Positions 2,611 through 58,882 of a stretch of DNA of 64,000 nucleotides are shown in pieces. The notes beneath the pieces were generated by a model that saw only the letters and a list, made by a program, of their open reading frames with translations, did not search any database and had not been told where the DNA came from. The position numbers and the translations under genes were made by a program. Origin of the DNA: Phocaeicola oris (GTDB lineage Bacteria; Bacteroidota; Bacteroidia; Bacteroidales; Bacteroidaceae); NCBI RefSeq assembly GCF_021295095.1, contig NZ_JAJLQX010000004.1, positions 62,001 through 126,000 of the forward strand. The letters are read 5' to 3'. Every line of letters begins with the position of its first letter. Position 1 is the stretch's first letter.

Positions 2611-3132
2611 ATTCTATAGATTATGTATGTAGGTACAAAGGTAATCTTTTCATGCTATAAAGCACATCAAAATCCGTGAAATATTATTTAATATGATAGT
2701 TTTTTTTATTAAAAAAAGATTTTTTGACTTTAAGAATAAAGATGCCTCTTTTTCTTCAACAAAGAGTCACAGACAGCTTTTCCTACAGATACTGTATCTT
2801 TACCGAGTGTTAGTATAACTTAAAACAGTGACGCGTACGAACGAATAAAGTGATCCGTATCAATCGGGCAACTCATCAGCATCAATCGAGTAACTCATCA
2901 GCATCAGTTGAGCAACTCATCAGCATCAGTTTTGTAACTCATCAACATCACTTTATAAGATGAAGCATATCTACTTGAATTCCGTTGTCCAACTCCTCAA
3001 CATACATAAAGGAACATCTTGAAAATGAAAACGTTTCAGCCAATGTATTTTGTAATACAAATGTAACATATATGTCACATCTCCATCACATATTAAAAAT
3101 ACTTTTGTCGTGCAAACGTAATTATAAGTTTA
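2611..3132. other. Divergent intergenic region purH / pit
   Basis: 522 bases between divergent genes. It holds the purH -7 box on the minus strand (CAAAGGTA on the plus strand at 2636-2643), A/T-rich sequence, a 22-base tandem array (2847-2954) preceded by an isolated start-like copy of the array edge at about 2826-2843, and a pit-facing -7 box TACTTTTG at 3100-3107. I see no gene here. Confidence 0.7.
2847..2954. repeat. Intergenic 22-bp tandem array no. 1
   Basis: Four consecutive 22-base units start at 2853, 2875, 2897 and 2919, followed by a partial unit. The common core reads ATCAGCATCA then TTGAGCAACTC with variation; AGTTG/CAACT forms a small palindrome in the third unit. The array is bordered by AAAGTGAT (2847-2854) and its inverse ATCACTTT (2947-2954). 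The same spacing and borders recur near 11.2 and 58.8 kb. No spacer sequences separate the units, so this is not CRISPR. Confidence 0.9.
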
Positions 3133-5238
3133 ATGGAAACAATGTTTTTGGGAATCGTAATCTTCCTATTCACGCTGGCAATCTTCGATCTTACCGTAGG
3201 CGTCAGTAATGATGCTGTCAATTTTCTCAATTCTGCAATTGGAGCTAAAGCAGCTTCGTTTAAAGTAATTATCGCAATCGCCGCTCTCGGTATCTTTTGT
3301 GGAGCAACCATGAGCAATGGCATGATGGAAATAGCTCGCCATGGAATCTTTCAACCAGAACAGTTTTATTTTCAAGAATTAATGTATATCTTCATCGCGG
3401 TTATGGTCACCGACGTGGTCGTTCTCGACATATTCAATACCTTAGGCATGCCTACGTCAACTACCGTATCCATGGTGTTCGAGCTGCTTGGCGGATCGGT
3501 CGCTCTTGCCATAGTGAAACTTATCAATGACGATAGCGGACTTTTAACCTTTGGAGAATTATTAAACACGAGTAAAGCTCTTTCCGTTATCATAGCCATA
3601 TTTGTATCTGTTGCTATTGCTTTCCTTTTTGGAGTAATCGCACAATGGATTTCACGTGTTATTTTTACATTCAATTATAAGAAACATTTAAAATATTCTA
3701 TTGGGATCTTTGGTGGTATCGCTATTACTTCCATCATTTATTTCATCTTTATAAAAGGATTAAGAGAATCTTCTGTGCTTTCTCCTGATTGGCAATCATG
3801 GATTCAACATAATACTTTTACTTTAGTACTCATATTCCTTGTTTTTTTCTCTGTTGTTATGCAGGTTTTGCACTGGTTCCACGTAAATATCTTCAAGATA
3901 ATCGTTCTGCTTGGAACTTTTGCTTTAGCAATGGCTTTTGCGGGAAACGACTTGGTTAATTTCATCGGTGTCCCTCTTGCCGGTTATTCCAGTTATCTCG
4001 ACTTTATTCATAATGGTAATGGCGAGCCGATGGGATATCTTATGGGAGCTCTTCGCGAACCGGCACGAACTCCTTTTCTATTTCTCTTTATAGCAGGAAT
4101 TATTATGGTGATTTCACTGATAAAATCAAAGAAAGCTCAAAATGTTATTAAAACATCTGTCGACTTGTCTCGTCAGGATGAAGGTGAAGAAATGTTCGGT
4201 TCCTCTATGGTTGCTCGAAGCTTGGTTAGAACATTCACGAATATATCTCAAAGTATTATATGTTATATACCAAGTTCTGTCAGGAACTGGATAAACAGTC
4301 GCTTCAATGCCGATGAAGCTATCATTGTCAATGGAGCCGCATTCGATCTTGTCCGTGCATCGGTCAACTTAGTTTTGGCGGCTTTATTGATAGCCCTTGG
4401 CACTTCACTGAAACTTCCTCTTTCCACTACTTATGTTGCCTTTATGGTAGCAATGGGCTCATCACTGGCAGATAGGGCATGGAGTCGCGACAGTGCGGTT
4501 TATCGTATCACCGGTGTTATATCTGTCATCGGCGGTTGGTTTATTACAGCCGGTGTAGCTTTCGTTGTCTGCTTCATTGTTACTCTTATCATTCACTTTG
4601 GAGGAATGATTGCAACCGTTTTGATGATTGCATTAGCTATCTTCCTCCTTATTCGCAGCAACATTAATTATGCGAAAAAAGAAAAAAGCAATAAGGGAAT
4701 AGATATGATTTTTAAACACATGATGAGTAGCAAAGATAAAACCGAGATATGGATACTGCTTAAAGAGCATGTAATAAATACACTCGTAAATTCTATGACA
4801 TACGCCATGGAAACCTATACGAAGATAACCGATGGTTTCTTTAACGAAGATCTTCACAATTTGCGTAAATGTATGAACAGTGCTGAAAATGAAAAAGAGT
4901 TACTGAAGAAAGAGCGACGCAAAGAGATACTTGGATTCCGCAAAATCGATCGATTCCTTGCGCTGGAAAAGAACACATGGTTCCATTTGGGAATAAACAG
5001 TTGCGAACAGATGTTATATTGCTTGAAGCGACTTTGCGAACCTTGTAAGGAGCATGTTGACAATAACTTTAATCCCATGAAAAAGACAGATATTGATAAA
5101 TTTATTCCGGTCCGTAATGAACTGATAGCTCTGATGGAGAAAGCCAGAGACATATTAAAAAGTGGCGATTACCTCCATACAGACGATTCTATCAGAGGGA
5201 GATATGCTAAAAGCAAAACTATCTGTCATGCGCCATAG
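3133..5238 (+). CDS. pit: PiT-family inorganic phosphate transporter (C-terminus frameshifted)
   Basis: Inner-membrane phosphate permease of the PiT/PHO-4 family, probably cation-coupled. The two signature repeats are visible: GVSNDAVNFLNSAIG near residues 23-37 and AFAGNDLVNFIGVPLAGYSS near 270-290. Many hydrophobic helices follow to about residue 510. Then comes a soluble, charged helical region of about 180 residues resembling PhoU. The open frame ends with DDSIRGRYAKSKTICHAP, which does not look like the family, while the +1 frame from about 5188 carries the expected C-terminus. A -7 box TACTTTTG at 3100-3107 precedes the start. Transport is confident; the end is probably disrupted by one extra base or a sequencing error. 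Confidence 0.9.
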   Translation: METMFLGIVIFLFTLAIFDLTVGVSNDAVNFLNSAIGAKAASFKVIIAIAALGIFCGATMSNGMMEIARHGIFQPEQFYFQELMYIFIAVMVTDVVVLDIFNTLGMPTSTTVSMVFELLGGSVALAIVKLINDDSGLLTFGELLNTSKALSVIIAIFVSVAIAFLFGVIAQWISRVIFTFNYKKHLKYSIGIFGGIAITSIIYFIFIKGLRESSVLSPDWQSWIQHNTFTLVLIFLVFFSVVMQVLHWFHVNIFKIIVLLGTFALAMAFAGNDLVNFIGVPLAGYSSYLDFIHNGNGEPMGYLMGALREPARTPFLFLFIAGIIMVISLIKSKKAQNVIKTSVDLSRQDEGEEMFGSSMVARSLVRTFTNISQSIICYIPSSVRNWINSRFNADEAIIVNGAAFDLVRASVNLVLAALLIALGTSLKLPLSTTYVAFMVAMGSSLADRAWSRDSAVYRITGVISVIGGWFITAGVAFVVCFIVTLIIHFGGMIATVLMIALAIFLLIRSNINYAKKEKSNKGIDMIFKHMMSSKDKTEIWILLKEHVINTLVNSMTYAMETYTKITDGFFNEDLHNLRKCMNSAENEKELLKKERRKEILGFRKIDRFLALEKNTWFHLGINSCEQMLYCLKRLCEPCKEHVDNNFNPMKKTDIDKFIPVRNELIALMEKARDILKSGDYLHTDDSIRGRYAKSKTICHAP

Positions 5239-5398
5239 TGAAATGAACCAAATGCAAGAGAATGATACAAACATAAAAACTGCATTGGTCTATCTTATCA
5301 TTCAGGAATCGCAAGAATTGGTTAGTATTTGGCGTCATCTGCTTCGTGCCGCACGTATGTTCCAATTAGAAGATAAACATATAGATAAAGTCGCATAA
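5188..5398 (+). pseudogene. Displaced C-terminal segment of the PiT transporter
   Basis: In the frame +1 relative to the upstream gene, the sequence reads ILSEGDMLKAKLSVMRHSE and continues through QESQELVSIWRHLLRAARM to a stop at 5398. This is the expected tail of the PhoU-like domain of Bacteroides PiT transporters. Skipping one base near 5187 joins KSGDYLHTD to ILSEGD smoothly. I read this as one gene split by a single-base indel, not as a separate gene. It has no promoter or start of its own. Confidence 0.8.
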
Positions 5399-5412
5399 TT
5401 TTACTCTACCAT

Positions 5413-5443
5413 TTTGTCAATATCAAAATTAGTATTACTTTTG
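5413..5443 (+). promoter_or_regulatory. Bacteroides-type promoter in the pit / K-channel gap
   Basis: TTTG at 5413-5416, a 19-base spacer, then TACTTTTG at 5436-5443. This fits the Bacteroides primary-sigma consensus exactly. It points to the right, but the next gene (potassium channel) is on the opposite strand, so no coding sequence lies downstream before a terminator at 5491-5524. Confidence 0.65.
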
Positions 5444-5449
5444 CAACGA

Positions 5450-5525
5450 CTTATTAAGATTTAATAAAATAGCTAAGGACATTAGCGATTCAGCGCCTTG
5501 ATGAGAATCACAGCGCTGTTTTTTA
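5450..5525 (+). ncRNA. Candidate small RNA between pit and the K+ channel gene
   Basis: The promoter at 5413-5443 predicts a start near 5450, and a hairpin with a T run ends at 5524, giving a transcript of about 75 bases with no reading frame of note. The 3' part is a CAGCGC/GCGCTG stem followed by six T, as in intrinsically terminated sRNAs. The hairpin could instead simply terminate pit, with the promoter match accidental. I do not recognise a known RNA family. Confidence 0.45.
5491..5524 (+). terminator. Intrinsic terminator
   Basis: CAGCGC (5491-5496) pairs with GCGCTG (5513-5518) around a 16-base loop, followed directly by TTTTTT. It ends transcription from pit and from the candidate sRNA promoter, before the convergent channel gene. 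Confidence 0.7.
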
Positions 5526-5541
5526 TTATCAAAAGAAACTC

Positions 5542-6297
5542 TTACATGTTTTTTATAGCTTCTTCCTTTCTCTCACGAATCTTTCTCAACTCATCCATGT
5601 AACTGGCAGTAATAACTCCGGAAGGGAGTGCAATAATCGCCACTCCAAATATGGCAGAAAGCATACTTATAAAACGCCCTAACTCAGTTACCGGACATAA
5701 ATCACCATAACCTACGGTGGTAAGTGTAACTGTCGCCCAATAGAGTGCGTCAAAGAATGAATTAAAGGTTACAGCTCCTGTATTGGGATTAATATGGGGT
5801 TCTGCATTAAACATGATAAGCGCGGTGAGAAAAATATAAAAAGAAGCCAAAACCAATACGGACAACAAAACATTCTTTTCCTTCTTTATCACTCCCATAA
5901 ATATAGTTATCTTATTGGTATAGCGAAAAATCTTTAACAATCGGACAATCTTTAATAACCTTGAGAGACGGAATATCTTAAAAGATGAACTAATGACATG
6001 CAAACTCGAAAGAATAGACAACAAATCTATGATTGCCATAAGAGTAAAAGGATAAACCAAAAAGGATTTCCATCCCTCTTTCAATTTCAAGTCCGCAGTC
6101 CCCCATCGTAGCAGATAATCAACAATAAAAATAATCGCTGTAATATACTCTGTATAAAAAAATATCGGATAGGTATTAATGGTCATCAACGGGAGAATAC
6201 TCACCATGATAACAATAAACATCCATACATCGTATATCCGGCTCAATACCAAATGCCGGTCACTTCTGTCTATGATACTAAAAATTAATTCTCTCAT
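5542..6297 (-). CDS. Voltage-gated-type potassium channel (ion transporter family)
   Basis: Inner-membrane channel protein of 251 residues with six predicted membrane segments. The S4-like segment at about 106-126 carries regularly spaced Arg/Lys (FRLSRLLKIVRLLKIFR). The pore loop has the potassium selectivity filter TTVGYGD at 193-199 between hydrophobic S5 and S6. There is only a short charged cytoplasmic tail and no RCK/TrkA nucleotide-binding domain, so it resembles the minimal Kv-like bacterial channels. It is a single gene, convergent with pit. Confidence 0.93.
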   Translation of the reverse strand: MRELIFSIIDRSDRHLVLSRIYDVWMFIVIMVSILPLMTINTYPIFFYTEYITAIIFIVDYLLRWGTADLKLKEGWKSFLVYPFTLMAIIDLLSILSSLHVISSSFKIFRLSRLLKIVRLLKIFRYTNKITIFMGVIKKEKNVLLSVLVLASFYIFLTALIMFNAEPHINPNTGAVTFNSFFDALYWATVTLTTVGYGDLCPVTELGRFISMLSAIFGVAIIALPSGVITASYMDELRKIRERKEEAIKNM

Positions 6298-6434
6298 TTT
6301 ATTCTATACATCATGTATCAAGTAAATTAGCAGGTATATTACAAATAGATTGCCAGAAACATTTTCACATCCAAAGCACGCAACCATTCCTCCAAGAAGA
6401 ATGGTTGCTATAACAAAAAAATATGTAACATAAA

Positions 6435-7295
6435 CTAAAGCTCCTCATCGCTACACTGGAATGTAGTACCCCTGCTGATATCTCCAGTCTGTAAACCAAG
6501 CTTGAACCACTTCATACGCTGAGCAGAAGTTCCATGATTAAAACTTTCAGGAATAGCATAGCCACGAGCTTTCTTCTGCAAATAATCATCACCGATTACG
6601 GCAGCACAATTAATAGCCTTTTCTATATCGCCATCCTCCAAAGAGCCAAACATCTTATTATCATAATTAGCCCAAACACCGGCATAGAAATCAGCCAAAA
6701 GTTCCAAGCGGACACTCAATTTGTTACTCTCCGTTTCATTAACAGTCTGCATCTTTTGATGAACCTGATCAAGCAAACCTGTCAAATACTCAACATGGTG
6801 CCCAACTTCATGAGCAATGACGTAAGCATAAGCGAAATCTCCATCAGCCCCCAACTGTTGTTTCATTGTACTAAAGAAAGACAAATCAAGATACAAAGCC
6901 TGATCCGCAGAACAATAGAACGGACCAACAGATGAAGTAGCACCGCCGCAACCTGTCTGAACACCATCAGTGAAGAGAACCATTCTTGGAACTTGATAAG
7001 TTGCGCCATGTTCTTTAAAAATTTGAGTCCAGACATCCTCGGTCCCCGCGAGAATCTGTTTAGAGAATTTTGCAAGTGCCTGTTCTTCTTCTGTAAATTC
7101 CCGTTGAGTAGTCTGTTGCTCTGTACCCATCATAGAACCGGCCTGCTGCAACACGTCAAGAGGATTGCCACCCATCAATAAAGTAATCAATCCGACAATA
7201 ATTATACCTCCAATTCCTAATCCGGTTTTCTGCCCGCCACTCAAACCGCGTCGGTCTTCAACATTGGAACTTTCTCTTCTACCGTTTAATTTCAT
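6435..7295 (-). CDS. YpfJ-type neutral zinc metallopeptidase
   Basis: Membrane-anchored putative zinc peptidase of the YpfJ/KPN_02809 family. A cytoplasmic basic start is followed by a single hydrophobic segment at about residues 25-42, then the periplasmic domain. The HEVGHH motif (162-167) gives two zinc-ligand histidines and the catalytic Glu, and ELLADFYAG near residue 198 supplies the downstream acidic ligand. The conserved CGGATSSVGPFYC and GTSAQR segments are present. The physiological substrate is not known. It stands alone with its own promoter at 7409-7439. Confidence 0.9.
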   Translation of the reverse strand: MKLNGRRESSNVEDRRGLSGGQKTGLGIGGIIIVGLITLLMGGNPLDVLQQAGSMMGTEQQTTQREFTEEEQALAKFSKQILAGTEDVWTQIFKEHGATYQVPRMVLFTDGVQTGCGGATSSVGPFYCSADQALYLDLSFFSTMKQQLGADGDFAYAYVIAHEVGHHVEYLTGLLDQVHQKMQTVNETESNKLSVRLELLADFYAGVWANYDNKMFGSLEDGDIEKAINCAAVIGDDYLQKKARGYAIPESFNHGTSAQRMKWFKLGLQTGDISRGTTFQCSDEEL

Positions 7296-7408
7296 AATAT
7301 TTATGCTTACGCTAATTTCTGCTTAATACAATTTAAATGTACTTGTAACCAACAATAACTACGCAAACTCTACGCTTTCAATCAGAATTTATAAAACTGT
7401 AAATCGTG

Positions 7409-7439
7409 CAAATATACATTCTTTTTCTTTTTATACAAT
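7409..7439 (-). promoter_or_regulatory. Promoter of the YpfJ-type peptidase gene
   Basis: On the minus strand the -7 box is TATATTTG (CAAATATA at 7409-7416 as written), with ATTG (7436-7439) 19 bases upstream as a near-match to TTTG. The predicted leader is about 105 bases. Confidence 0.5.
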
Positions 7440-7533
7440 ACAATCCATTAAAATCTATTGTTAGTTCGACACTATAAAATTCAAAAAATTAAAAATATGA
7501 CATTCGCTTTAATATATTAACAAAACAATTCGT

Positions 7534-7541
7534 TATCTTTG
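7534..7541 (+). promoter_or_regulatory. -7 promoter element of the carboxyltransferase gene
   Basis: TATCTTTG matches TAnnTTTG. The upstream element is only a weak TTTA near 7508. The predicted start is about 50 bases before the ATG at 7602. Confidence 0.5.
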
Positions 7542-7601
7542 CATATTACTTTACTTTTTAATATTATCAACTAATATAGAATAATTACTAATAACAAGAA
7601 T

Positions 7602-9371: not shown

Positions 9372-9391
9372 GTAAATAGTCAATAAATAAG

Positions 9392-10127: not shown

Positions 10128-10129
10128 AA

Positions 10130-10951
10130 TCAAAGCACTAACCAACTATCTTTCCGTTTCTTGCAAGTAGCAATCAAATAAACACCTAATAAGATGAGCG
10201 GAATACTCAATTTTTGACCGATATTCAAAGCCATGCCTACCTCCTCGGCTACCTGAGGATTTTTCATAAACTCCAGTCCAAATCGGGTTCCAAAAAAGAT
10301 AATCAGCGCAACACCGGTAATCAGTCCGATATATTTCTCCAAATGGTATTTATGATACATTACCCAAGCAACAACTCCTGCTGCCAAGCAATAAAGCATC
10401 TCATAAATCTGTGTCGGGTGACAAGGTAAGCCTTCATAAAGTTCATGCCATTCCCTTGAACGAATAAATTCGAATCCCCAAGGCATCGTAGTAGGATAAC
10501 CAAAAATCTCAGAATTCATTAAATTTCCAAAACGGATACAGAAGCATAAAGCAGCAACGCCCGGAATCATCCTGTCGAACAGCCACCAAACATTCTTATG
10601 CGTAACACGCGCTGAGAAAAGAATCACACCAAGAATCACACCGATAGCTCCACCATGACTGGCGAGACCTCCTTTCCAAATCTTCAATATCTCCAACGGA
10701 TGAGCAGAATAATAATCCCATTCATAGAAAAGACAATGTCCCAAACGAGAGCCAAGCACTGTAAAAACAATGCAATAAACAAACAGTTTGTCAGGCCATT
10801 CTTTTGGACAGCCTTCTTTCAACATGGTACGACTAACTATCTCATAAGCTAAGATAAATCCCAAGCCCCACATCAATCCATACCAGCGTAACTCTATAGA
10901 ACCGAGACGTAAAAGAATCGGGTCTGCGTCCCATACGATACTTGCTAACAT
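10130..10951 (-). CDS. lgt: Prolipoprotein diacylglyceryl transferase
   Basis: Inner-membrane enzyme that moves a diacylglyceryl group from phosphatidylglycerol onto the lipobox cysteine of prolipoproteins. The 273-residue protein has about seven hydrophobic helices. Visible motifs are RWYGLMWGLGF near residue 23, GSRLGHCLFYE near 66, GGLASHGGAIG near 92 and the signature CIRFGNLMNSEIFG near 136, with HPTQIYE near 175. It is co-oriented with the DUF3256 gene downstream. It matters here because many proteins in the window (SusD and others) are lipoproteins. Confidence 0.97.
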   Translation of the reverse strand: MLASIVWDADPILLRLGSIELRWYGLMWGLGFILAYEIVSRTMLKEGCPKEWPDKLFVYCIVFTVLGSRLGHCLFYEWDYYSAHPLEILKIWKGGLASHGGAIGVILGVILFSARVTHKNVWWLFDRMIPGVAALCFCIRFGNLMNSEIFGYPTTMPWGFEFIRSREWHELYEGLPCHPTQIYEMLYCLAAGVVAWVMYHKYHLEKYIGLITGVALIIFFGTRFGLEFMKNPQVAEEVGMALNIGQKLSIPLILLGVYLIATCKKRKDSWLVL

Positions 10952-11060: not shown

Positions 11061-11185
11061 ATATGAACATGAGCCCGACGAATCTAAAAGAATACGAACC
11101 GTGCATTATTACTCTTCTTAAATAGATAAACGGCTTCTTGGAATATCAACTATATAAGCTACTGTTCCGACGCGGATGAAGATGA

Positions 11186-11316
11186 AAAGTGATACGTATG
11201 AGTTGCTCAACTGACGCGGATGAGTTGATCGATTCATGCGGATGAGTTGATCGATTCATGCGGATGAGTTGATCGGTTCATGCGGATGAGTTGGTTGATT
11301 CATACGTACGACTTTA
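11186..11316. repeat. Intergenic 22-bp tandem array no. 2
   Basis: Five units of exactly 22 bases start at 11192, 11214, 11236, 11258 and 11280, followed by a partial unit. The core is GGATGAGTTGATCGATTC preceded by ATGC. Units three to five are nearly identical; the first differs most. GAGTTGATCGATTC is a near-palindrome and TCATGCGGATGA a second one. The left border AAAGTGATACGTATGA is mirrored on the right by TCATACGTACGACTTT. Its units are close to those of the array at 58.8 kb. Confidence 0.92.
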
Positions 11317-11340
11317 CCTCCATCTCTTTATGACCATGTC

Positions 11341-11440
11341 AATGAACCAAACAAAAAGGGAAAAGCACCTTACCAACATGTTATAAGACCGTATTCTACC
11401 TTCGTCGGTTTCCGCGTGACCTCTCTGTTATTTCTTTGAA
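11341..11440 (+). repeat. Dispersed ~100-bp repeat, copy A
   Basis: Aligns with 46279-46379 over about 100 bases with only small gaps in the second half. The first 45 bases align without gaps and form a 14-codon frame in both copies (here MNQTKREKHLTNML then stop, 11342-11386). Shared blocks after that include CCGTATTC, TACCTT and CTGTTATTTC. Both copies lie just beyond the 3' end of a minus-strand gene. Strand and function are unknown. Confidence 0.75.
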
Positions 11441-11481
11441 CTCACGTTAATCCCAAATCGGTCAATATTTATAAGATATGA

Positions 11482-12381
11482 TTAAACCAAATGAGCAATC
11501 AAATCTTCACGCTCACCATAGAGCAAGTCAATAACAGGAATCTCAATCATGGTATAACACCCCGGAGCTTGTTTCATAGCTGCACGAGCCGCGCAAACCA
11601 AGACCTGTCCGGTCAATGCCGGATTATTAATCTTCATATCGAACTCGAACAACTGGTTTTGAGTTTTACCGGATACACCTTTACGAACTAAGTTCACGCC
11701 ATGACCGCGATCGAGCAAGTCTTCAACACAAGGCACCTGAATAACATGCGTTTCATCGTGCACAAAATAATCATCTTTTTTAATTGCGGCAGCCACATCC
11801 TCAAACTTATAGCCATCCTTCAGTTCTATGTAAACCATTCGACGATGAATGCCTGTACCTACAGGGATAGTCATAGATAAAGCAGCTTTCACACCATCAA
11901 TACTTTTAACGGCAACGGTATGCCCCATGCTCATACCCGGACCAAAATTAGTATACGTAATTCCTTTGGGAGCTATGGCCTGCAACAATGTACGGACAAT
12001 AGAATCTGAACCCGGGTCCCAACCCGATGAAATAATAGAAACAACCTTATTCGCTTTGGCAACCTCGGAAAGAGAACGTCGCAACGTAGGTATCTGCGTA
12101 TGAATATCAAAGCTATCCACGGTATGAATACCCATAGAAAGAATCTGTTTTGCATATTCCTCTACCTTTCGTGTCGGAGTAGCAAGAATGGCAACGTCCA
12201 CATTCTGCAACTCTTTCATTTCTTTAACTACCTTATACGGAGTCAACTCTACCGGTTTATCGGCATCACCATGACGACGAACAATTCCGGCAATCTCAAA
12301 GTCGGGAGCAACCTCCAATGCCTCAACAACATATTTGCCAATATTACCATATCCTACAACGGCAGCTTTAATCTTTTTCAT
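11482..12381 (-). CDS. ddh: meso-Diaminopimelate D-dehydrogenase
   Basis: NADP-dependent enzyme that interconverts meso-diaminopimelate with tetrahydrodipicolinate plus ammonia, giving a one-step route to DAP and lysine. The 299-residue length is usual. The N-terminal Rossmann fold has VVGYGNIGKYV at residues 8-18, and the substrate region shows SSGWDPGSDS near 117, FGPGMSMGHT near 146 and GTGIHRRMVYIEL near 175. A minus-strand -7 box (CAAAATTA at 12422-12429 as written) lies about 40 bases upstream. It is a stand-alone gene. Confidence 0.95.
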   Translation of the reverse strand: MKKIKAAVVGYGNIGKYVVEALEVAPDFEIAGIVRRHGDADKPVELTPYKVVKEMKELQNVDVAILATPTRKVEEYAKQILSMGIHTVDSFDIHTQIPTLRRSLSEVAKANKVVSIISSGWDPGSDSIVRTLLQAIAPKGITYTNFGPGMSMGHTVAVKSIDGVKAALSMTIPVGTGIHRRMVYIELKDGYKFEDVAAAIKKDDYFVHDETHVIQVPCVEDLLDRGHGVNLVRKGVSGKTQNQLFEFDMKINNPALTGQVLVCAARAAMKQAPGCYTMIEIPVIDLLYGEREDLIAHLV

Positions 12382-24257: not shown

Positions 24258-24361
24258 AATATTATCCACGAAGCCTTTCTCCACGATATACAAATCTGAT
24301 TACAACTATCTATTAAACAAGTCATCTTGTTAGTTAGCTGTTTCATGATTATAATTCAATC

Positions 24362-24445
24362 GTTTCACTGCAGTGAGACAATTGTTTCACTATTGTGAGA
24401 CGTTCGTTTCACTCTTGTGAGACACTTGTTTCACCCATGTGAAAC
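24362..24445. repeat. Intergenic 22-bp palindromic array no. 3
   Basis: Units start at 24362, 24384, 24406 and 24428. Each begins GTTTCAC, has four variable bases and then GTGAGAC (GTGAAAC in the last), forming an 18-base near-perfect palindrome, followed by a 4-base variable linker (AATT, GTTC, ACTT). The unit sequence is unrelated to arrays 1, 2 and 5, but the 22-base spacing is identical. Confidence 0.92.
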
Positions 24446-24543
24446 ATCCTTTTTATAAGCAAAAAATCGGAACATTATACTAACATCAAATCAATTGATG
24501 GGCATCTTTTCCCTTTATTGAAAAATAAAAACGTAAAAGAAAA

Positions 24544-44153: not shown

Positions 44154-44261
44154 ATCAAAGCCTTTCTTTTTCATCTATTAGGTGTATTATACCCATGAAC
44201 TAAGTATATTATAAGGCAATCTATCTGTTTTATAACAACAACTAAGCACGTCTCGAAGGAG

Positions 44262-44352
44262 ATACACGTGTACCACGCACGTGGTGCAACTTCCTCACGC
44301 ACGTGGTGCACGTGTATCACGCACGTGGTACAACCTCCCCACGCACGTGAGG
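44262..44352. repeat. Intergenic 22-bp palindromic array no. 4
   Basis: The core CACGCACGTG occurs at 44274, 44296, 44318 and 44340, exactly 22 bases apart, with related CACGTG copies between. Each core sits in a small palindrome (CCACGcaCGTGG). The linkers (TGCAACTTCCT, TGCACGTGTAT, TACAACCTCCC) vary more than the core. It is G/C-rich in an A/T-rich gap between the convergent rlmH and DnaJ-like genes. Confidence 0.92.
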
Positions 44353-45782: not shown

Positions 45783-45957
45783 CGCCAATAAAAAAATACT
45801 TTACGCATACGTCATTAATTTAACAATTCGGCCAAATGTACAAAATAAAACACAATCAACACTTGTTGTTAAGAATAAATAAGAAAAAAAAAACTTTACA
45901 TCAAAAAAGAAAGTGTCTCTAAAAAATAGATATCAATTATATTATTAACACAATTAA

Positions 45958-46255: not shown

Positions 46256-46278
46256 TTACCAGTCTTTATAACAATTTT

Positions 46279-46379
46279 AATGAACCTAACGGAAAGAAGA
46301 AAACACCGCTTAAACATACTATAAGGCCGTATTCCCTACCTTGTAAGTTTCTACATAACCTTTCTGTTATTTCATCAAA
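46279..46379 (+). repeat. Dispersed ~100-bp repeat, copy B
   Basis: Partner of 11341-11440. The matching frame here reads MNLTERRKHRLNIL then stop (46280-46324). Against copy A, several codon differences are synonymous (Thr ACG/ACA, Arg AGA/AGG, Lys AAA/AAG, Leu CTA/TTA). It lies 11 bases from the stop of the DUF5107/TPR gene. Confidence 0.75.
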
Positions 46380-52601: not shown

Positions 52602-52623
52602 TATGGGTAAAAAGTTATTGCTA

Positions 52624-52631
52624 CAAATATA
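52624..52631 (-). promoter_or_regulatory. -7 element for the PD40/DUF6057/DUF5107 genes
   Basis: CAAATATA as written, TATATTTG on the minus strand. It sits between the susD terminator and the PD40 start at 52601. The upstream element is off spacing. It suggests the downstream genes have their own promoter. Confidence 0.45.
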
Positions 52632-52635
52632 ATAA

Positions 52636-52669
52636 AAAACGGGCTTTAGCAAAAACCAAAGCCCGTTTT
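52636..52669 (-). terminator. Terminator after susD
   Basis: AAAACGGGCTTT (52636-52647) pairs with AAAGCCCGTTTT (52658-52669), a 12-base perfect stem followed by TTTTATT on the minus strand. It separates susC-susD from the three downstream genes, at least in part. Confidence 0.85.
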
Positions 52670-52683
52670 ATACTCATATTAAA

Positions 52684-54312
52684 TTATTTTTTCAAATTCG
52701 GATTCAAATCTTGATCAACTGCCGGATAAGGAGCATAAATATTTTTAGCTTCCGAGAAAGAACCTTCCGGAGATATTGACTCCTTAATAACAACGCCCGG
52801 AACAACTTCTACACCGGTGGTATGATCTTCTTGACGATCAGCCCATACCTTACCTAACAAACTCATACGCTGCAAGTCCATACGACGAGTCTGGCAAGCC
52901 ATCCAATAGCCTGCAACCTCCCATCCATGTTCTTTGAAGCAAAGTTCCGCGAAATCATCAGCTGATAAAGAACCTGCTACTATAGGATTTTCACCTGCAC
53001 GAACGCGAACTTTATTCAAGCATTCCAAAGCCTGAGTATTAACAGAGCCTGTCGCACGAGCAGAGCATTCTGCATACCACAAAAGAACCTCTGAATAACG
53101 GATACAAAGAACACGTTTTTCTGTACAAGCATGGTCAACAGAAGGAGTTGCGCTGCCACCATACGTATAATCAAAATCTGCTGTACCATTATTTGAAGCA
53201 CAGAAAATTTGATAACATGGATGAGCCTCAGGAATGATAAAATTGCCTTCCGGATCTTTATCCCAGAAATTATGCAATTGCCCTCTATAACCACCTACGA
53301 GTACCATAATTTTAGGCATGAAAGTTGCGTCCTTACGAGCTCCTTCCGGAAAATCCTTCCAGAAACGTAAAGCACCCCAACCGTCTCCCCAACCACCTTG
53401 GGACTCGAATACATTACTCTTACCTGTTTCATTATCTTGTGACCAAGTAAAAGCCGCGCTCTTATTAATACCAACAACCGTTTCATTGTTATAGTTATGG
53501 CTTAATGAATAAACCTGACTATATTCCGGTAACAAATTGTATTCGAAAGTACCACTGTTGCTACCATCAATAACCTGCTTTGCCACATCTGCAGCCTTAG
53601 CGTAATATTCTGTTCCTTTATTCAAAGGCCAACCTGCCATATTCATATATACGCAAGACAACGTTGCCATAGCTGCCTGTTTAGTTATATAAGTAGCTAC
53701 TCCCTGATAAGCACGAGGAGCTGCAGTATACTTGGTAGGCAAATTAGCAACACAATACTCCAAATCAGAAACAATTATATTATAAACATCCTGAACACTT
53801 GACAACGGAGTCTCCTGAGAAATCTCATTAGTCAAATTCAATGGTAACTCACCAAACAGGCGTACCAAATAGAAATAATTATATGCTCTCCAATAATGAG
53901 CTTGTCCCAATGCAATCTTAATCTCTTCTTCCGAAACAGGAGTTTTTTCTGCGTTAGCAATCAAATAGTTTGCTGCTTTAATTATCGCATAAGAAGTATC
54001 CCATGCCGTAACAACCGTTTTATTATCATTAACCATAACAAATCGGTCATACTGTGCATAAGCTTGCTTGTTTGAAGCCGGATGGGTAGTTAAGTCATCT
54101 CCCATCCATGCCGGTCCGTATGCATTCGTATTGTTGGCAGGGTCATTAACTTTCTTCCAAAGGGCAGTTACTGCCATATCCAAATCACTCTGTGATGAGA
54201 AGAATGTGTCTGCAGATAACTTACCTTTCGGATCTTCATCTAAAAAATCACTGCACGATGTTGCAAATAAAGAACTTATGAGCAAGCATCCAATTAATAT
54301 TTTATTCTTCAT
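52684..54312 (-). CDS. SusD-like surface nutrient-binding lipoprotein
   Basis: 542 residues with the lipoprotein signal MKNKILIGCLLISSLFATSC. The mature start SDFLDEDPKGKLSADTFFSSQSDLDMAVTALW is typical, and the RagB/SusD helical core shows ALGQAHYWRAYNYFYLVRLFGELPLNL near 135-160 and CLNKVRVRAGENPIV with ELCFKEHGWEVAGYW near the end. It partners the SusC upstream. The ligand is unknown because no hydrolase lies in the locus. Confidence 0.95.
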   Translation of the reverse strand: MKNKILIGCLLISSLFATSCSDFLDEDPKGKLSADTFFSSQSDLDMAVTALWKKVNDPANNTNAYGPAWMGDDLTTHPASNKQAYAQYDRFVMVNDNKTVVTAWDTSYAIIKAANYLIANAEKTPVSEEEIKIALGQAHYWRAYNYFYLVRLFGELPLNLTNEISQETPLSSVQDVYNIIVSDLEYCVANLPTKYTAAPRAYQGVATYITKQAAMATLSCVYMNMAGWPLNKGTEYYAKAADVAKQVIDGSNSGTFEYNLLPEYSQVYSLSHNYNNETVVGINKSAAFTWSQDNETGKSNVFESQGGWGDGWGALRFWKDFPEGARKDATFMPKIMVLVGGYRGQLHNFWDKDPEGNFIIPEAHPCYQIFCASNNGTADFDYTYGGSATPSVDHACTEKRVLCIRYSEVLLWYAECSARATGSVNTQALECLNKVRVRAGENPIVAGSLSADDFAELCFKEHGWEVAGYWMACQTRRMDLQRMSLLGKVWADRQEDHTTGVEVVPGVVIKESISPEGSFSEAKNIYAPYPAVDQDLNPNLKK

Positions 54313-54331
54313 AATTATATACTCTTAATGA

Positions 54332-57300
54332 TTAGAAATTAAACTTGGCTCCAAGCGTGAAGGTACGTGGAGTAGGATAACCACCCATATCAACACCGCT
54401 TGTTACGTCAGCATGTCCATCTGAGAAAGAATAAGCTGCAGGGTCCATACCGCTATAGCCGGAAATAGTAAACAAATTCTGGCAACTTAAAGACAAGCGA
54501 ATATCAGCAAAATGTGTAACCGATTTCTTCAACGTATACGACAAGCTTAAATTCTGTAAACGCAAAAAGTCGGCATTCTCCAGATATTGAGTTGAATTAG
54601 GATACATATTATTTGTCGTACTTGTCTGAGAAGCGCAATACGGATTCTCTTTATTCTTATCCCAATTGTTATAATAAGCATCACGAATAGTGATAAAACG
54701 AGAGTCACCAACCATATTCTCACCGGCAAAACGAACAATATTCAAACGTTTAGCTCCAAGAGAGGCATTGAAAAATACATTCAAATCCCAATTCCCGTAT
54801 GATAAAGAGTTGTTCCAGCCGAAAGTCCAATCCGGAGTTGCTTTTCCTGTTAATATACGGTCATTACTATCAACCTTTCCATCGTTATTGACGTCACGAT
54901 AAATATTATTACCGGTATTTTTATCAATGCCATCCCACTGATACAAATAGAATACACCCATAGGATAGCCTACCTGTGCACGAGTTACACCATCGGGTGG
55001 AATCATACCGGCTGCAGGGGTAGTACCTGAAAGATATTCATCACCTGCCAAATCGATAACCTTATTCTTATTATAAGTGCCGGTCAAAGTAAAGTTCCAA
55101 TTAAACTTATCACTTTGAACAGGACGAGCATTAATAGCAGCTTCAAAACCATGATTCTTGATTTTACCGGCATTCACCCAGTATGTACCACCTCCGTCAT
55201 AATGAGGGATCTGTTTCTGTAACAATGCGTCGGTGGTAGTTTTGGTATAATAATCTAAGGTAAAACTCAAACGACGGTCTAATACAGAGAATTCAACACC
55301 CAAGTCGAACTGTTTAGTCTTTTCCCAAGTCAAATCCGGAGTTGCCAAACTATTCAACCAATAACCGGAGTAATTTGAACTTGCGCCATAACCATAGTCT
55401 GCAGCAGAAAGCATACCCAATGTTTCATAAGAACCTAAAGCCTGAGAACCCACAATACCATAGCTGACACGAAGCTTAATGTCTTGTATTCCTTGAAAAT
55501 CTTTCAAGAAACTTTCATTACTTGCATTCCATGCAAGAGCAATTGATGGGAAATAGCCCCACTTTTTCTTTGTGAACTTAGAAGAACCATCGGCACGGAA
55601 TGTACCGGTTAACAAATAACGATCACCGTAGTTATACATAACACGGCCAACTCCTGATAACAAAGCCCAATCGGAATAGCCGTTATCGCCTGTACGAGTA
55701 GCAGCCAAATTATAGTTCCAATAGCCTACGCTTTCTGTCAGTAAATCTTTGCCGTTTAAGCTCATCGAACGACTTTCATTCTTTGTGATTTCCCAAACGC
55801 CTGTTGCAGTCAAGCCATGTTTTCCCCACTGACCAACATAAGTCAGGTTGTTAGACGATTGCAACTGCATGTTCTGATAATCATAATTACCCATGGAGTT
55901 TCTTTGTTCAACTCGTTTTGTCGAGAAAGAATATGACTTGTAATTACGGAAATCCATACCATTTGTAGTAGTGAATGTTAAACCTTTAAGGATGTTGAAA
56001 CGTAAATCAACCATAGCATTTACGGTATTGATTACGACATCAGAACCCTCTTCTTTGGCAATACCATAAGGGTTACGACCGATAGCATTATAGTTATCGA
56101 ATGCGTACGATCCATCTTCAAGATACATATTCATTGAAGGAGAATAACTGATAGCCTGCCAAATAGGATTAGCCTTGCTTGCCGACCAACCGCTTGTGCT
56201 GTAACGATCGCCATGCGATACATTCACATCCGCCGTAACATGGAACCATTTTGTTACATCAGAAGAGACATTAACACGACCGGTGTAACGTTTATTATTA
56301 CTGAACACAAAGATACCGTCCTGGTTCAAATAATTTCCGGAAATATAATATTGAGTATCTTTATTTCCGTTGGAAATGGCAACTTTATAGTTCTGCGTAA
56401 CAGCTGTACGGAACATAGTATCCTGCCAGTCAATACCGCCTCCATTCTTATACGACTCTAATTCCGCTGCAGTGAATGCGTTCGGATTGCCTTTTATATC
56501 CATATATGCTTGAGCATATTCATAAGCATTCATCAAATCGTATGTTTTGTATATATTGGAAATTCCTACCTCTGCGTCAAATGAAATGATCTTCTGGTCG
56601 GCACGACCTTTTTTCGTAGTAATCAAAACAACACCATTTGAACCACGAGAACCGTAAATTGCAGTAGAAGAAGCATCCTTCAACACTTGAATAGCCTGAA
56701 TATCATCGGAATTGATACCTTCCAAACCCGATTCACGAACAATACCATCAACTACATAAAGCGGATCGTTACTCTTATTAACAGAGTTAGCACCACGAAC
56801 ACGAATCTTGACAGAACCACCCGGTACACCGGAATTCTCAACTTGCACACCGGCCAAACGTCCCTGCAAAGCCTCAGATACATGCGTAATAGGCTGGTCA
56901 CGGAAATTCTTGTCATCAACTACAGCAACAGCTCCGGCCAAGTCGGCCTTTTTTACTGTACCGTAACCAATAACAACTACCTCTTCCAATGCTTCCGAAT
57001 CCTCAGACAAAGTAATCTTTAAAGTACGTTGATTGTTAACGGCTACTTCCTGAGCGGTATAGCCGATATAAGAAACGACTAAAGTAGCATTAGACCTCAC
57101 ATTCAAAGTAAAATTACCGTCCATGTCGGTAATTGTTCCATTAGTTGTACCTTTTTCCAAAACGTTGGCACCAATAATCGGATCACCATTAGAATCAAGT
57201 ACTTGTCCTTTTACAGTAATTGCCTGTTGGACAGCTTCAATTGCATCTGAACTCAGACTCGTTGCGTTTACAGCACTGAATGAGCTACCAGCAATCAAAC

Positions 57301-57382
57301 ATACGGACATTCCTAAAGTTTTTAAGAATTGACCGCGTCGCAGAAATATATTATTCCCGCCAGTCAAATGATTGTTGTTCAT
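54332..57382 (-). CDS. SusC/RagA-type TonB-dependent transporter without STN domain
   Basis: 1,016 residues. After a long signal region (to about 40) it goes directly to the carboxypeptidase-regulatory-like domain (about 52-130, VKGQVLDSNGDPIIGANVLEKG), the plug (AVVDDKNFRDQPITHVSEALQGRLAGVQVEN) and the barrel ending PRTFTLGAKFNF. With no STN domain and no sigma/anti-sigma genes nearby, it is not regulated by the FecR relay used at the first locus. A minus-strand promoter candidate lies at 57557-57588, giving a leader of about 170 bases. Confidence 0.96.
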   Translation of the reverse strand: MNNNHLTGGNNIFLRRGQFLKTLGMSVCLIAGSSFSAVNATSLSSDAIEAVQQAITVKGQVLDSNGDPIIGANVLEKGTTNGTITDMDGNFTLNVRSNATLVVSYIGYTAQEVAVNNQRTLKITLSEDSEALEEVVVIGYGTVKKADLAGAVAVVDDKNFRDQPITHVSEALQGRLAGVQVENSGVPGGSVKIRVRGANSVNKSNDPLYVVDGIVRESGLEGINSDDIQAIQVLKDASSTAIYGSRGSNGVVLITTKKGRADQKIISFDAEVGISNIYKTYDLMNAYEYAQAYMDIKGNPNAFTAAELESYKNGGGIDWQDTMFRTAVTQNYKVAISNGNKDTQYYISGNYLNQDGIFVFSNNKRYTGRVNVSSDVTKWFHVTADVNVSHGDRYSTSGWSASKANPIWQAISYSPSMNMYLEDGSYAFDNYNAIGRNPYGIAKEEGSDVVINTVNAMVDLRFNILKGLTFTTTNGMDFRNYKSYSFSTKRVEQRNSMGNYDYQNMQLQSSNNLTYVGQWGKHGLTATGVWEITKNESRSMSLNGKDLLTESVGYWNYNLAATRTGDNGYSDWALLSGVGRVMYNYGDRYLLTGTFRADGSSKFTKKKWGYFPSIALAWNASNESFLKDFQGIQDIKLRVSYGIVGSQALGSYETLGMLSAADYGYGASSNYSGYWLNSLATPDLTWEKTKQFDLGVEFSVLDRRLSFTLDYYTKTTTDALLQKQIPHYDGGGTYWVNAGKIKNHGFEAAINARPVQSDKFNWNFTLTGTYNKNKVIDLAGDEYLSGTTPAAGMIPPDGVTRAQVGYPMGVFYLYQWDGIDKNTGNNIYRDVNNDGKVDSNDRILTGKATPDWTFGWNNSLSYGNWDLNVFFNASLGAKRLNIVRFAGENMVGDSRFITIRDAYYNNWDKNKENPYCASQTSTTNNMYPNSTQYLENADFLRLQNLSLSYTLKKSVTHFADIRLSLSCQNLFTISGYSGMDPAAYSFSDGHADVTSGVDMGGYPTPRTFTLGAKFNF

Positions 57383-57710
57383 ACCATTGTGATTAATAAA
57401 TTGTGAAATTAAATTATTTCCATCATAAAATCCGGACGAAATATACCTTCATCCTGACAATACATATTTACACCTATAACAACAATATACAATACTAATT
57501 AAATAAAAAAAGATAAAAAATTATCCACTTTTTATACTTTCACACATATCCCGTGGCAAATGTAGCATCTTTTTCACACATTGTGCAATACTTATCGAGT
57601 TTTTTAACATAACTAATTCTATATCCCCTTTTGTAGGTATTTTTAAGTCAGATACGTATCGAAAATTCATAAAAAACATTACCTTTACAGCCGTAAAACT
57701 GTAAATCATC
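57383..57710. other. Divergent intergenic region susC / RidA-like gene
   Basis: 328 bases, A/T-rich. The susC promoter candidate is at 57557-57588 (minus). A plus-strand TACCTTTA near 57680 could serve the RidA-like gene. No regulator gene or repeat array is present. Confidence 0.55.
57557..57588 (-). promoter_or_regulatory. Candidate promoter of the second susC
   Basis: The minus-strand -7 box TACATTTG (CAAATGTA at 57557-57564 as written) has ATTG (57585-57588) 20 bases upstream. The leader of about 170 bases is long enough for post-transcriptional control, which many Bacteroides susC leaders have. Confidence 0.45.
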
Positions 57711-58733
57711 ATGGATAAATACGAAATACTATCATGTCAGAATAGAAATCTATTTCCTGAAAGGCTGGACGAAATAAAAGTTCGTACGCTTTCCTACCTG
57801 AGTGAGGAAGAAAAAGAAGGACGCCATTTACAATATTCTAAAATATTCCTCAGCGATGCTCAAAACCAATATTTGCAATTAATAGCATCTCCACTTTACA
57901 CCGATATACTGAGGCATAAGGCTTGCTCTATCATCGAACAAGCCCCACTCGACGGGTCGAAAATCTCCATTCTGCTGAAGACTTCCGATGCAGATGCCCC
58001 ATTCATATTCCAATCATACCGCTTGAGTAAGGAGGATGCCGCATGTAACAATTCATATCTGGAACTGACCATTATATTCGAAAAATATCTTAAAACACTA
58101 AAAGCTAAAGGCTTGGACATGGCAACTCACTTGGTTCGTACATGGATCTACGTCAGCGATATAGATAACAATTATAATGGTGTAGTCAAAGCCCGAAATG
58201 ATGTGTTTAAAAGTTATGGACTGAGTACGGATACTCATTTTATTGCCAGTACCGGAATAGGAGGTAATACCGAGACTCAAAATGCCTTTGTGGGAATGGA
58301 TTTTCTTACTTATCCGCATATCAAAGAAGAAGACAAACTCTATTTAAAAGCATTGGATCATTTAAGTCCGACACATGATTATGGTGTTTCTTTCGAACGG
58401 GGAACTCGCTTAGAACTATCGGACAAGTACATTTATTACATATCGGGTACCGCCAGCATTGATAAAGAAGGCAATACCATTAATATAGGAAATCTGTCAA
58501 AGCAAACTGATCGCCTGATTGAAAATATCAATGCCTTGCTGAAAGAAGGTGATGCCACACTAAATGACGTTCGTTATTTCATCGTTTACCTGCGCGATGT
58601 GTCAGATTATCTGGAAACGGAACATTACATGAAGAAACATTTTCCACATATACCTTATATCATAGTAAATGCTAAAGTGTGCCGTCCGTCGTGGCTCATC
58701 GAAATGGAATGTATTGCCGAGAAAGCTAAATAA
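57711..58733 (+). CDS. RidA/chorismatase-like protein
   Basis: 340 residues, cytoplasmic, no signal. The middle (THLVRTWIYVSDIDNNYNGVVKARNDVFKSYGL, about 142-174) and the end (YFIVYLRDVSDYLETEHYMKKHFPHIPYIIVNAKVCRPSWLIEMEC) look like two halves of YjgF/RidA-type trimeric folds. This is the arrangement of FkbO/Hyg5-type chorismatases. The ISGTASID segment near 244 and the terminal Arg and Glu of CRPSWLIEME could be active-site residues. A specific reaction cannot be given. It is a single gene divergent from susC. Confidence 0.65.
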   Translation: MDKYEILSCQNRNLFPERLDEIKVRTLSYLSEEEKEGRHLQYSKIFLSDAQNQYLQLIASPLYTDILRHKACSIIEQAPLDGSKISILLKTSDADAPFIFQSYRLSKEDAACNNSYLELTIIFEKYLKTLKAKGLDMATHLVRTWIYVSDIDNNYNGVVKARNDVFKSYGLSTDTHFIASTGIGGNTETQNAFVGMDFLTYPHIKEEDKLYLKALDHLSPTHDYGVSFERGTRLELSDKYIYYISGTASIDKEGNTINIGNLSKQTDRLIENINALLKEGDATLNDVRYFIVYLRDVSDYLETEHYMKKHFPHIPYIIVNAKVCRPSWLIEMECIAEKAK

Positions 58734-58775
58734 AGCAGTCAAAGTCTTTTTTATTGTTCATGAAATAAAAATCAA

Positions 58776-58882
58776 AAAGTGACGCGGATGAATCGCTTGG
58801 TTCATGCGTATCATTTGCTAAACTCATGCGTATGAGTTGATCGATTCATCCGCATGAGTTGAACGGTTCATACGTATCACTT
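58776..58882. repeat. Intergenic 22-bp tandem array no. 5
   Basis: Units start at 58782, 58804, 58826 and 58848, followed by a partial unit. Cores are CGGATGAATCGCTTGGTTC, CGTATGAGTTGATCGATTC and close variants. The borders are AAAGTGA (58776-58782) and the inverse TCACTT (58877-58882). The third unit matches the array-2 units at most positions, so arrays 1, 2 and 5 are one sequence family. It lies between convergent genes. Confidence 0.92.

What the first reader, a model, noticed from the sequence alone, without database searches (positions are those of the whole stretch)
2847..58882. Five intergenic tandem arrays share an exact 22-base period but not one sequence
At 2847-2954, 11186-11316, 24362-24445, 44262-44352 and 58776-58882 short units repeat every 22 bases with no length drift (for example CACGCACGTG at 44274, 44296, 44318 and 44340). 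Three arrays share a sequence theme and AAGTGA/TCACTT borders; the other two have unrelated units. Most units contain a palindrome. They occur in divergent, convergent and co-oriented gaps next to unrelated housekeeping genes. The constant spacing (about two helical turns) with local homogenisation suggests a protein-binding or structural array, not CRISPR, REP or a simple mobile repeat. I know of no described family that fits.
Basis: seen in the sequence. Interest (0 to 1): 0.85.

Follow-up and report, generated by a model that had tools for sequence, protein, structure and literature searches.

The report
Scattered DNA arrays of HU-HIG proteins
Gut Bacteroidales carry short DNA arrays, repeated every 22 or so bases and built of mirror-symmetric units, that usually stand just in front of genes for a poorly known histone-like protein family (HU-HIG) and also lie scattered between unrelated genes, which suggests that each such protein marks the chromosome with its own array.

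Summary
The five arrays are real: exact 22-bp period, 0% indels, intergenic; only 22 and its multiple 44 pass a scan of the window, nothing in shuffles. In 464 kb of this Phocaeicola genome 34 arrays have period 22. Units carry a dyad: 30 of 34 here, 36 of 54 in 2.8 Mb of relatives, with unrelated sequences.

The key lies outside the window. Genes of HU-HIG proteins (PF18291, HU/IHF-like) mostly have a 20-24 bp array directly upstream: 42 of 49, against 77 of 571 gap-matched other genes and 2 of 48 downstream; 17 of 20 in a second set; 10 of 12 in B. finegoldii and Parabacteroides. Window arrays 3 and 4 match the arrays upstream of two HU-HIG genes of the same genome. Arrays 1, 2 and 5 (class A, 28 of 34 sampled) have no HU-HIG partner in the 95% complete assembly. 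Some copies, array 2 included, ride in IS982-related MITEs.

Best reading: arrays bound by HU-HIG proteins, upstream copies as operators, other copies dispersed partly by mobile elements. Binding is inferred, not shown.

The parts
2822..2972 (-). Array 1, class A (minus-strand unit ATGAGTTGCTCGATTGATGCTG), divergent gap between purH (1087-2610, minus) and the ORF 3133-5238 (plus)
11176..11323 (+). Array 2, class A (unit ATGAGTTGATCGATTCATGCGG), gap between lgt (10130-10951, minus) and ddh (11482-12381, minus)
11068..11447 (+). MITE that carries array 2: left end ACATGAGCCCGACGAA.., leader 11068-11188, tail 11305-11445, right end 11425-11447 (ACGTGAGTTCAAAGAAATAACAG on the minus strand)
24336..24460 (+). 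Array 3, class C (GTTTCACTnTTGTGAGAC..); matches the array upstream of the HU-HIG gene at G000:C6:45060-45416 (locus L418)
44254..44352 (+). Array 4, class B (CACGCACGTGGTGCAACTTCCT); matches the array upstream of the HU-HIG gene at G000:C11:131577-131942 (loci L416, L037); convergent gap between rlmH and a djlA-like gene
46262..46379 (+).
58779..58903 (+). Array 5, class A, convergent gap between 57711-58733 (plus) and 58940-59653 (minus)

Best explanation
The arrays are DNA binding lattices of HU-HIG proteins. A HU-HIG protein has an HU/IHF-like domain (shown by Pfam) and, in the 49 genes counted, a further C-terminal domain; Pfam matches a helix-turn-helix there over its cut-off in one of four own proteins and below it in a second, and I take it to be a winged helix in the others by alignment (inferred). 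Most such genes (42 of 49) are preceded by an array of units every 20-23 bp, mostly with a dyad, that ends a median 53 bp before the protein start (shown). I infer that the protein binds this array as stacked dimers, one per unit, on the same face of the helix because 22 bp is about two turns, with the HU part bending the DNA; the upstream copy would be the gene's own operator. Copies of such arrays lie in other intergenic gaps (shown for classes B, C and D here, for the family of G043 and for that of the P. vulgatus clade), some of them inside IS982-related MITEs (shown), and would bring those gaps under the same protein, as regulatory or nucleoid-organising sites (inferred). Class A, the commonest here, would be the array of a HU-HIG protein that is lost or lies in the unassembled part (inferred, the weakest step).
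For: Association: 42 of 49 HU-HIG genes with the C-terminal domain have a 20-24 bp array within 300 bp upstream; 36 of 43 after leaving out six loci met through their arrays; 77 of 571 other genes with a gap of at least 150 bp (odds ratio 33, p 2e-22 for 36/43); 2 of 48 downstream (first count 42/49 against 108/1670). Second set, chosen by gene hits only: 17 of 20 upstream, 1 of 20 downstream. B. finegoldii (8) and Parabacteroides distasonis (4): 10 of 12, all ten with a significant dyad. Dyads in 31 of the 42. Cognacy: window array 3 is 0.77 identical to the own L418 array (best of 38 arrays from other genomes 0.68), window array 4 0.86 to L037/L416 (0.68), C11:185149 0.86 to L395 (0.50). In G043 four of six dispersed arrays reach 0.77-0.86 with the array of its HU-HIG gene. 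In P. vulgatus, G008, G011 and G019 the amplified unit is the one upstream of their HU-HIG gene. At that orthologous site the array of G055 aligns without gaps inside the array, yet all its units have changed sequence and it still has a significant dyad. No G.U excess on the mRNA strand of 69 HU-HIG-upstream arrays (146 GU, 211 AC), which favours DNA over RNA.
Against: No binding data exist here. Class A, 28 of 34 sampled arrays and three of the five in the window, matches no HU-HIG upstream array of its own genome (at most 0.64) nor of the others (at most 0.64, but for one unclear array at C11:86899, 0.73). The unit comparison is noisy: eight of the 17 own arrays that match an own HU-HIG array at 0.72 or more also reach 0.72 with some array of another genome, and so do three of the four in G043. 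Of five full HU-HIG genes in this genome, the one on C22 (no C-terminal domain) has no 21-23 bp array, only a weak period-20 hit. 13 of the 42 upstream arrays have period 21, not 22. The 49 genes include orthologues from related species, so they are not all independent and the p-values are too small. Dispersed arrays of Bacteroides loci were not compared with HU-HIG genes of their own genomes. In G027 the orthologue of the P. vulgatus gene has no array within 290 bp, only one of another unit further out. A Bacteroides promoter motif (TAnnTTTG, recalled) was found in or after only 7 of 42 upstream arrays, so operator function is unplaced.
Confidence: 0.7

Rival explanations
1. The arrays are only the minisatellite interior of IS982-derived MITEs (BrickBuilt-like selfish DNA); period and dyad are accidents of the founding element, spread by transposition and slippage.
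For: Leader found 20 times and tail 30 times in the genome; full-length copies with inverted ends and 7-bp target duplications (L270, L271, L272); the same ends on an element with an IS982 transposase fragment; directly neighbouring units are most alike (0.68 against 0.565 for inverted neighbours), as slippage gives; no array in the orthologous gaps of the nearest relatives.
Against: Only 10 of 34 sampled arrays keep any recognisable shell, and a blind search for inverted ends plus target duplication finds 1 of 34, control 1. The same shell carries unrelated array classes. The dyad and the 22-bp rule recur in unrelated sequences across relatives, and most HU-HIG genes have an array upstream.
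Confidence: 0.15
2. RNA-level function: tandem 7-bp hairpins with 4-nt loops in transcripts (5' leaders, terminators or mRNA stabilisers).
For: Units fold on paper as 7+4+7+4 (my reading); convergent gaps carry arrays more often (of gaps of at least 150 bp: 11 of 23 convergent, 16 of 51 co-directional, 6 of 37 divergent, a seventh in a shorter divergent gap); in co-directional gaps of the own sample the summed pairs on the coding strand are 163 G.U against 81 A.C.
Against: Adjacent arms pair no better than distant ones (0.565 against 0.556); array by array the own co-directional gaps split 9 for G.U and 7 against, and relatives give 32 G.U against 68 A.C; upstream of HU-HIG genes 23 arrays lean to G.U and 39 to A.C; arrays also lie in divergent gaps; no Rfam family at gathering score in the window.
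Confidence: 0.07
3. A structural DNA element without a dedicated protein, for example cruciform extrusion or phased curvature that absorbs supercoiling, or a by-product of palindrome-prone replication.
For: Sequence differs freely while dyad and period stay; 200 kb of E. coli shows none at period 22 and a sample of other Bacteroidales families only 2 in 317 kb, like other periods, so it would be a lineage habit.
Against: Does not explain why arrays stand upstream, not downstream, of one protein family, or why dispersed units resemble the array of the same genome's own HU-HIG gene.
Confidence: 0.08

Closest known systems
BrickBuilt minisatellite/MITE of Porphyromonas gingivalis (PMC4596501, passages read)
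   Same: Intergenic tandem units without spacers inside a MITE with terminal inverted repeats; the paper also mentions unlocated 22-nt direct repeats in strain W83; its table gives MITE239 and MITE700 ends (ACGTGAGTTCGA.., ..TCGAACTCACGT) that resemble the ends here
   Different: 23-nt unit of one sequence, ends like IS5-family elements, 19 copies in ATCC 33277; no link to HU-HIG genes in the passages read; here several unrelated classes, and most sampled arrays show no shell
HU-HIG proteins (Pfam PF18291; NCBIfam TIGR01201 HU_rel)
   Same: The genes with upstream arrays that I scanned are members by Pfam score; L069, L414 and L415 also pass TIGR01201, L416 and L418 stay below its cut-off
   Different: The searches of the held library that I made found no paper on their DNA targets or on an upstream array
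Iteron and centromere arrays with the binding protein encoded alongside (R6K, RK2, ParR-parC, TubR-tubC; recalled, from no call)
   Same: Tandem sites, in several cases at about two helical turns, beside and probably regulating the gene of the binder
   Different: Plasmid replication or partition there; here chromosomal, several paralogous pairs per genome, HU fold, and copies dispersed in the genome
REP elements with RAYT transposases (recalled, from no call)
   Same: Palindromic intergenic repeats, dispersed copies, a protein gene flanked by the repeat
   Different: RAYTs are tyrosine transposases; here the linked protein is an HU-like DNA binder

Membership tests
BrickBuilt MITE | 23-nt tandem unit of the BrickBuilt sequence | tested here: not met
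   Period 22 with 0% indels; the BrickBuilt unit sequence itself was not available for comparison
BrickBuilt MITE | Minisatellite inside a MITE with inverted ends | tested here: inconclusive
   Met for array 2 and for L270-L272; shell recognisable in 10 of 34 sampled arrays
IS982-derived MITE (array 2 element) | Inverted ends shared with an IS982 transposase-bearing element of the genome | tested here: met
   transposase fragment NF033520 E 7.8e-7, 28.9 bits, below the cut-off of 130, as only an N-terminal part is present; no Pfam match; two plasmid homologues annotated IS982
IS982-derived MITE | Target site duplication | tested here: met
   7 bp at L270, L271, L272, read by eye; none clear at array 2 itself
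CRISPR | Repeats separated by unique spacers | tested here: not met
   Units are contiguous
REP/RAYT | RAYT transposase gene flanked by the repeat | not tested
   No search for RAYT genes was made
Rfam RNA family | Match at gathering score | tested here: not met
   0 in the window; 1 in six other loci, not overlapping an array
HU-HIG protein with cognate array | Adjacent gene scores as HU-HIG | tested here: met
   L069 2.7e-39; own L414, L415, L416, L418; other genes by a profile built from nine of these proteins
HU-HIG protein with cognate array | Dispersed arrays share the unit of the array upstream of an own HU-HIG gene | tested here: inconclusive
   Met for classes B, C, D, not for class A
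HU-HIG protein with cognate array | The protein binds the array | not testable with these tools
   Needs gel shift or ChIP-seq

The most novel reading that the evidence does not exclude
Bacteroidales carry a set of parallel, mutually private chromosome-marking systems: each HU-HIG paralogue reads only its own 21-23 bp dyad lattice, nucleates a bent, stacked nucleoprotein filament on it, represses or tunes itself through the upstream copy, and through copies carried by mobile elements gains up to hundreds of sites across the genome. The dyad code and the protein drift together, so each species ends up with its own code.
Probability: 0.4. Interest if true: 0.92.

Novelty: new variant of a known kind. 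Interest (0 to 1): 0.82.

Why it matters
HU-HIG-type proteins are numerous in Phocaeicola (up to 16 matches in one genome with one query), and the searches that I could make found no paper stating what they bind. The arrays give a concrete, sequence-level answer that can be tested at once, turn a puzzling class of intergenic repeats into candidate regulatory or nucleoid sites, and offer a natural experiment in protein-DNA co-evolution: an orthologous array that changed every unit yet kept dyad and register.

Tried and rejected
RNA hairpin reading: tested by pairing of adjacent against distant arms, by G.U against A.C on the coding strand, and by Rfam; not supported, though the summed pair counts in the own co-directional gaps lean to G.U, 163 to 81. 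My first reading, a MITE minisatellite as the whole account, was dropped when the HU-HIG link appeared, but kept as the vehicle of some copies. A blind search for inverted ends plus target duplications around arrays gave no clear excess (own 1 of 34, control 1; relatives 3 of 39, control 1). Mirror symmetry of the flanks beyond the arrays: not above control in own arrays (p 0.83) nor in relatives (p 0.35); with the outermost unit included, relatives p 1.3e-5, own p 0.81. A dyad test on consensus units from short cores found few significant families (four at 22, two at 21, two at 23) and was replaced by the column-permutation test. A search for class A in viral contigs found nothing. Structure prediction was never accepted because the queue was full. 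The 2017 paper that I recall as the source of the name HU-HIG is not held, so nothing from it is used. In one search, 73 HMM hits became 56 genes after dropping redundant ones, those with under 180 bp upstream and those whose match begins after model position 15; seven of the 56 lack the C-terminus (4 of 7 with a weak array) and are not in the 49. The relatives include loci L160-L218, some of which overlap genomes of L051-L130. Of 19 plasmid-collection records with a homologue, 12 were fetched; six P. massiliensis records (a species already sampled) and one P. distasonis record with a partial match were not.
Full report
What was claimed and whether it is there. All five are confirmed with period 22 and 0% indels. 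A scan of periods 8 to 60 finds only 22 and 44, at these places, and five dinucleotide-Markov shuffles give nothing. The TRF consensus unit of array 2 has 220 matches in the window's own genome with up to three mismatches, against none for the reversed pattern. In 464 kb of that genome (window plus 400 kb taken from contigs C11 and C22), 34 arrays have period 22; no period that is not a multiple of 22 exceeds 4. In a scan at another threshold 33 of 34 are intergenic, while none of the few arrays at other periods from 15 to 30 is. At this density the 2.98 Mb genome would hold about 218 (my arithmetic; the rest was not scanned).

Where it is. The window is G000:C44:62001-126000. The tool places G060 in the same genus as G000, and the ddh gene of G060 has the coordinates of the P. 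vulgatus ATCC 8482 locus found by name, so the host is a Phocaeicola species. Its nearest relatives in the set of 61 genomes by these two proteins, G043 and G054, share 86% of ddh and 76% of rlmH.

Anatomy. The 34 arrays fall into four classes by best match to a class unit (at least 15 of 22 bases): A 28, B 4 (one of them upstream of a HU-HIG gene), C 1, D 1. Window arrays 1, 2 and 5 are class A, array 3 class C, array 4 class B. Units are imperfect palindromes. With the 22 columns permuted as a null, 30 of 34 own arrays have a significant dyad (p up to 0.02) and none of 13 arrays at other periods has; in 2.83 Mb of relatives (166 sequences, partly redundant) the figures are 36 of 54 at period 22 and 15 of 83 at all other periods from 14 to 35, with 23 (5) and 21 (4) leading. 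The units of relatives mostly have unrelated sequences. Samples of other Bacteroidales families (317 kb) show 2 at period 22, no more than other periods, and 200 kb of E. coli shows none. Neighbouring units in direct orientation are most alike (0.68), while inverted neighbours are no more alike (0.565) than inverted half-units three steps away (0.556), which speaks for tandem homogenisation and against selection on single hairpins.

Mobile vehicle. Array 2 sits in an element of about 380 bp, window 11068-11447. Its leader has 20 matches and its tail 30 in the genome (E up to 0.01). Copies with the same tail carry class A or class C cores, and a few have no detected array. L270, L271 and L272 have inverted ends ACGTGA.TTCGA and 7-bp target duplications (read by eye). 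An element at C1:1195-1842 has the same ends and an N-terminal part of an IS982 transposase. In L245 a class C dyad and a class A-like dyad of one element are 33 bp apart, three half-periods. Yet only 10 of the 34 sampled arrays keep leader or tail at E up to 0.05, so the MITE is a vehicle and not the explanation. The class A arrays look recent in this lineage: of 61 genus genomes only the own one has them, apart from a single two-mismatch hit in G021, with single hits at most in 2 of 12 named relatives and in 2 of 147 other genomes of the order. The two nearest relatives have no array in the rlmH downstream gap (16 and 70 bp against 263), and G043 none in the ddh-lgt gap (129 against 530).

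The turn. In P. vulgatus an array of the unit GTGGACTGTACGGTCTGC lies beside a gene of an HU-like protein. This unit is amplified in G011 (50 matches), G019 (38), G008 (13) and G060 (12), and absent here; 12 of 61 genomes have any match, the other eight with one or two, as the reversed control also gives. The gene is HU-HIG (PF18291, E 2.7e-39). The array lies in the same upstream gap in G060, G008, G011 and G019; in G055 it lies about 120 bp further out and aligns without a gap inside the array while every unit has changed and a significant dyad remains. In G027 only an array of another unit begins 295 bp away. This led to asking whether HU-HIG genes in general have arrays upstream.

The association. 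With a profile built from nine HU-HIG proteins, 56 non-redundant genes with enough upstream sequence were found in the loci held; 49 have the C-terminal domain. Of these, 42 have a 20-24 bp array within 300 bp upstream (26 at 22, 13 at 21, two at 23, one at 20), against 108 of 1670 other genes (odds ratio 87, p 5e-40). Against genes with an upstream gap of at least 150 bp, and leaving out six loci met through their arrays, it is 36 of 43 against 77 of 571 (odds ratio 33, p 2e-22); downstream of the HU-HIG genes it is 2 of 48. Some control arrays may be genuine dispersed arrays; some HU-HIG genes are orthologues of each other, so the p-values overstate. A second Phocaeicola set, one gene from each of 20 genomes picked from the hit list without regard to arrays, gives 17 of 20 upstream, 14 with a significant dyad, and 1 of 20 downstream. 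B. finegoldii and Parabacteroides distasonis genes give 10 of 12, all ten with a significant dyad; one of the two failures is a short protein beside an annotated amidase gene. The array ends a median 53 bp (quartiles 39 and 66) before the protein start. Apparent orthologues keep their period: the arrays at L399, L404 and L409 share a period-21 unit, as do those at L385, L387 and L388, as expected if the protein sets the ruler.

Back to the window. The own genome has nine matches to PF18291, of which five cover nearly the whole model; I read three of the rest as ordinary HU-type genes. Upstream of the one on C6 is GTTTCACTATTGTGATTCACTC, class C, the class of window array 3; upstream of the one on C11 is ATCACGCACGTGGTACACGTTG, class B, the class of window array 4; upstream of the one on C13 is TTGAGATTCGAGCACATCACAG, class D, found dispersed at C11:185149; upstream of the one on C16 is a 23-bp array; the fifth, on C22, lacks the C-terminal domain and has no 21-23 bp array, only a weak period-20 hit. 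Unit identities of window arrays 3 and 4 and of C11:185149 to the own HU-HIG arrays are 0.77, 0.86 and 0.86, above the best of 38 arrays from other genomes (0.68, 0.68, 0.50). The measure is noisy: of 17 own dispersed arrays that reach 0.72 with an own HU-HIG array, eight also reach it with some foreign one. In G043, four of six dispersed arrays match the array of its HU-HIG gene, three of them also some foreign array. Class A matches no own HU-HIG array. The assembly is 95% complete and a few class A arrays lie within some hundred bases of contig ends, so a missing partner is possible, but this is a gap in the case.

Mechanism. Shown: the gene-array pairing, the dyad, the 21-23 bp period, dispersal, the MITE vehicle, change of all units of one orthologous array with the dyad kept. 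Inferred: that the protein binds the array; that it does so as one dimer per unit on one face of the DNA, since HU and IHF act as dimers that bend DNA and 22 bp is about two turns (general knowledge of that family; the profile matches solved HU and IHF chains; a helix-turn-helix is matched over the cut-off in L414 only); that the upstream array is an operator; that dispersed arrays extend the protein's reach. RNA-level readings are disfavoured: on the mRNA strand of 69 HU-HIG-upstream arrays there are 146 G.U and 211 A.C pairs, and 23 arrays lean to G.U against 39 to A.C; the own co-directional gaps lean to G.U in summed pairs (163 to 81) but not by array (9 to 7), relatives the other way (32 to 68).

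Known or new. The closest described repeat is BrickBuilt of P. gingivalis (passages of PMC4596501; passages of PMC5771137). Searches of the held library for HU-HIG, for HU-family proteins with repeats, and for 22-bp palindromic repeats in Bacteroides listed nothing on this pairing (listings and abstract starts only). The library lacks most subscription papers. I rate it a new variant of a known kind, since a DNA-binding protein beside its tandem sites is a known theme (iterons, ParR-parC; recalled), with a bolder reading stated separately.

Noticed in passing
window 46262-46379: Tail of the IS982-type MITE without any detectable array, between the ORFs ending at 45788 and 49701.
   Followed up: partly
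L421 (G000:C11 near 115904-117385): A class A array lies about 800 bp upstream of a pair of HU-type genes that are not full HU-HIG; possibly chance, but no other class A array was seen near an HU-type gene in what I looked at.
   Followed up: no
L128:11862-11931 minus: Rfam FopS sRNA (RF04319) in B. xylanisolvens, about 200 bp from a 22-bp dyad array at 12128-12191.
   Followed up: no
L425 (Parabacteroides distasonis, upstream of an HU-HIG gene next to rpsL): Its unit contains TTTCACCTATGTGAAA, very like class C here and the G043 family, although the genus is in another family; convergence or old orthology.
   Followed up: no
L211, downstream of rlmH in G049: Long inverted repeat built of 11-bp half-units (AATGAACGGCA..) in a Phocaeicola rlmH downstream gap; L212 and L213 have simple terminator-like hairpins there (read by eye).
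   Followed up: no
L100, L115 and others: Period 7/14/21 arrays of GATTAGT/ATCATTA-like heptamers in Bacteroides loci, a different repeat type.
   Followed up: no
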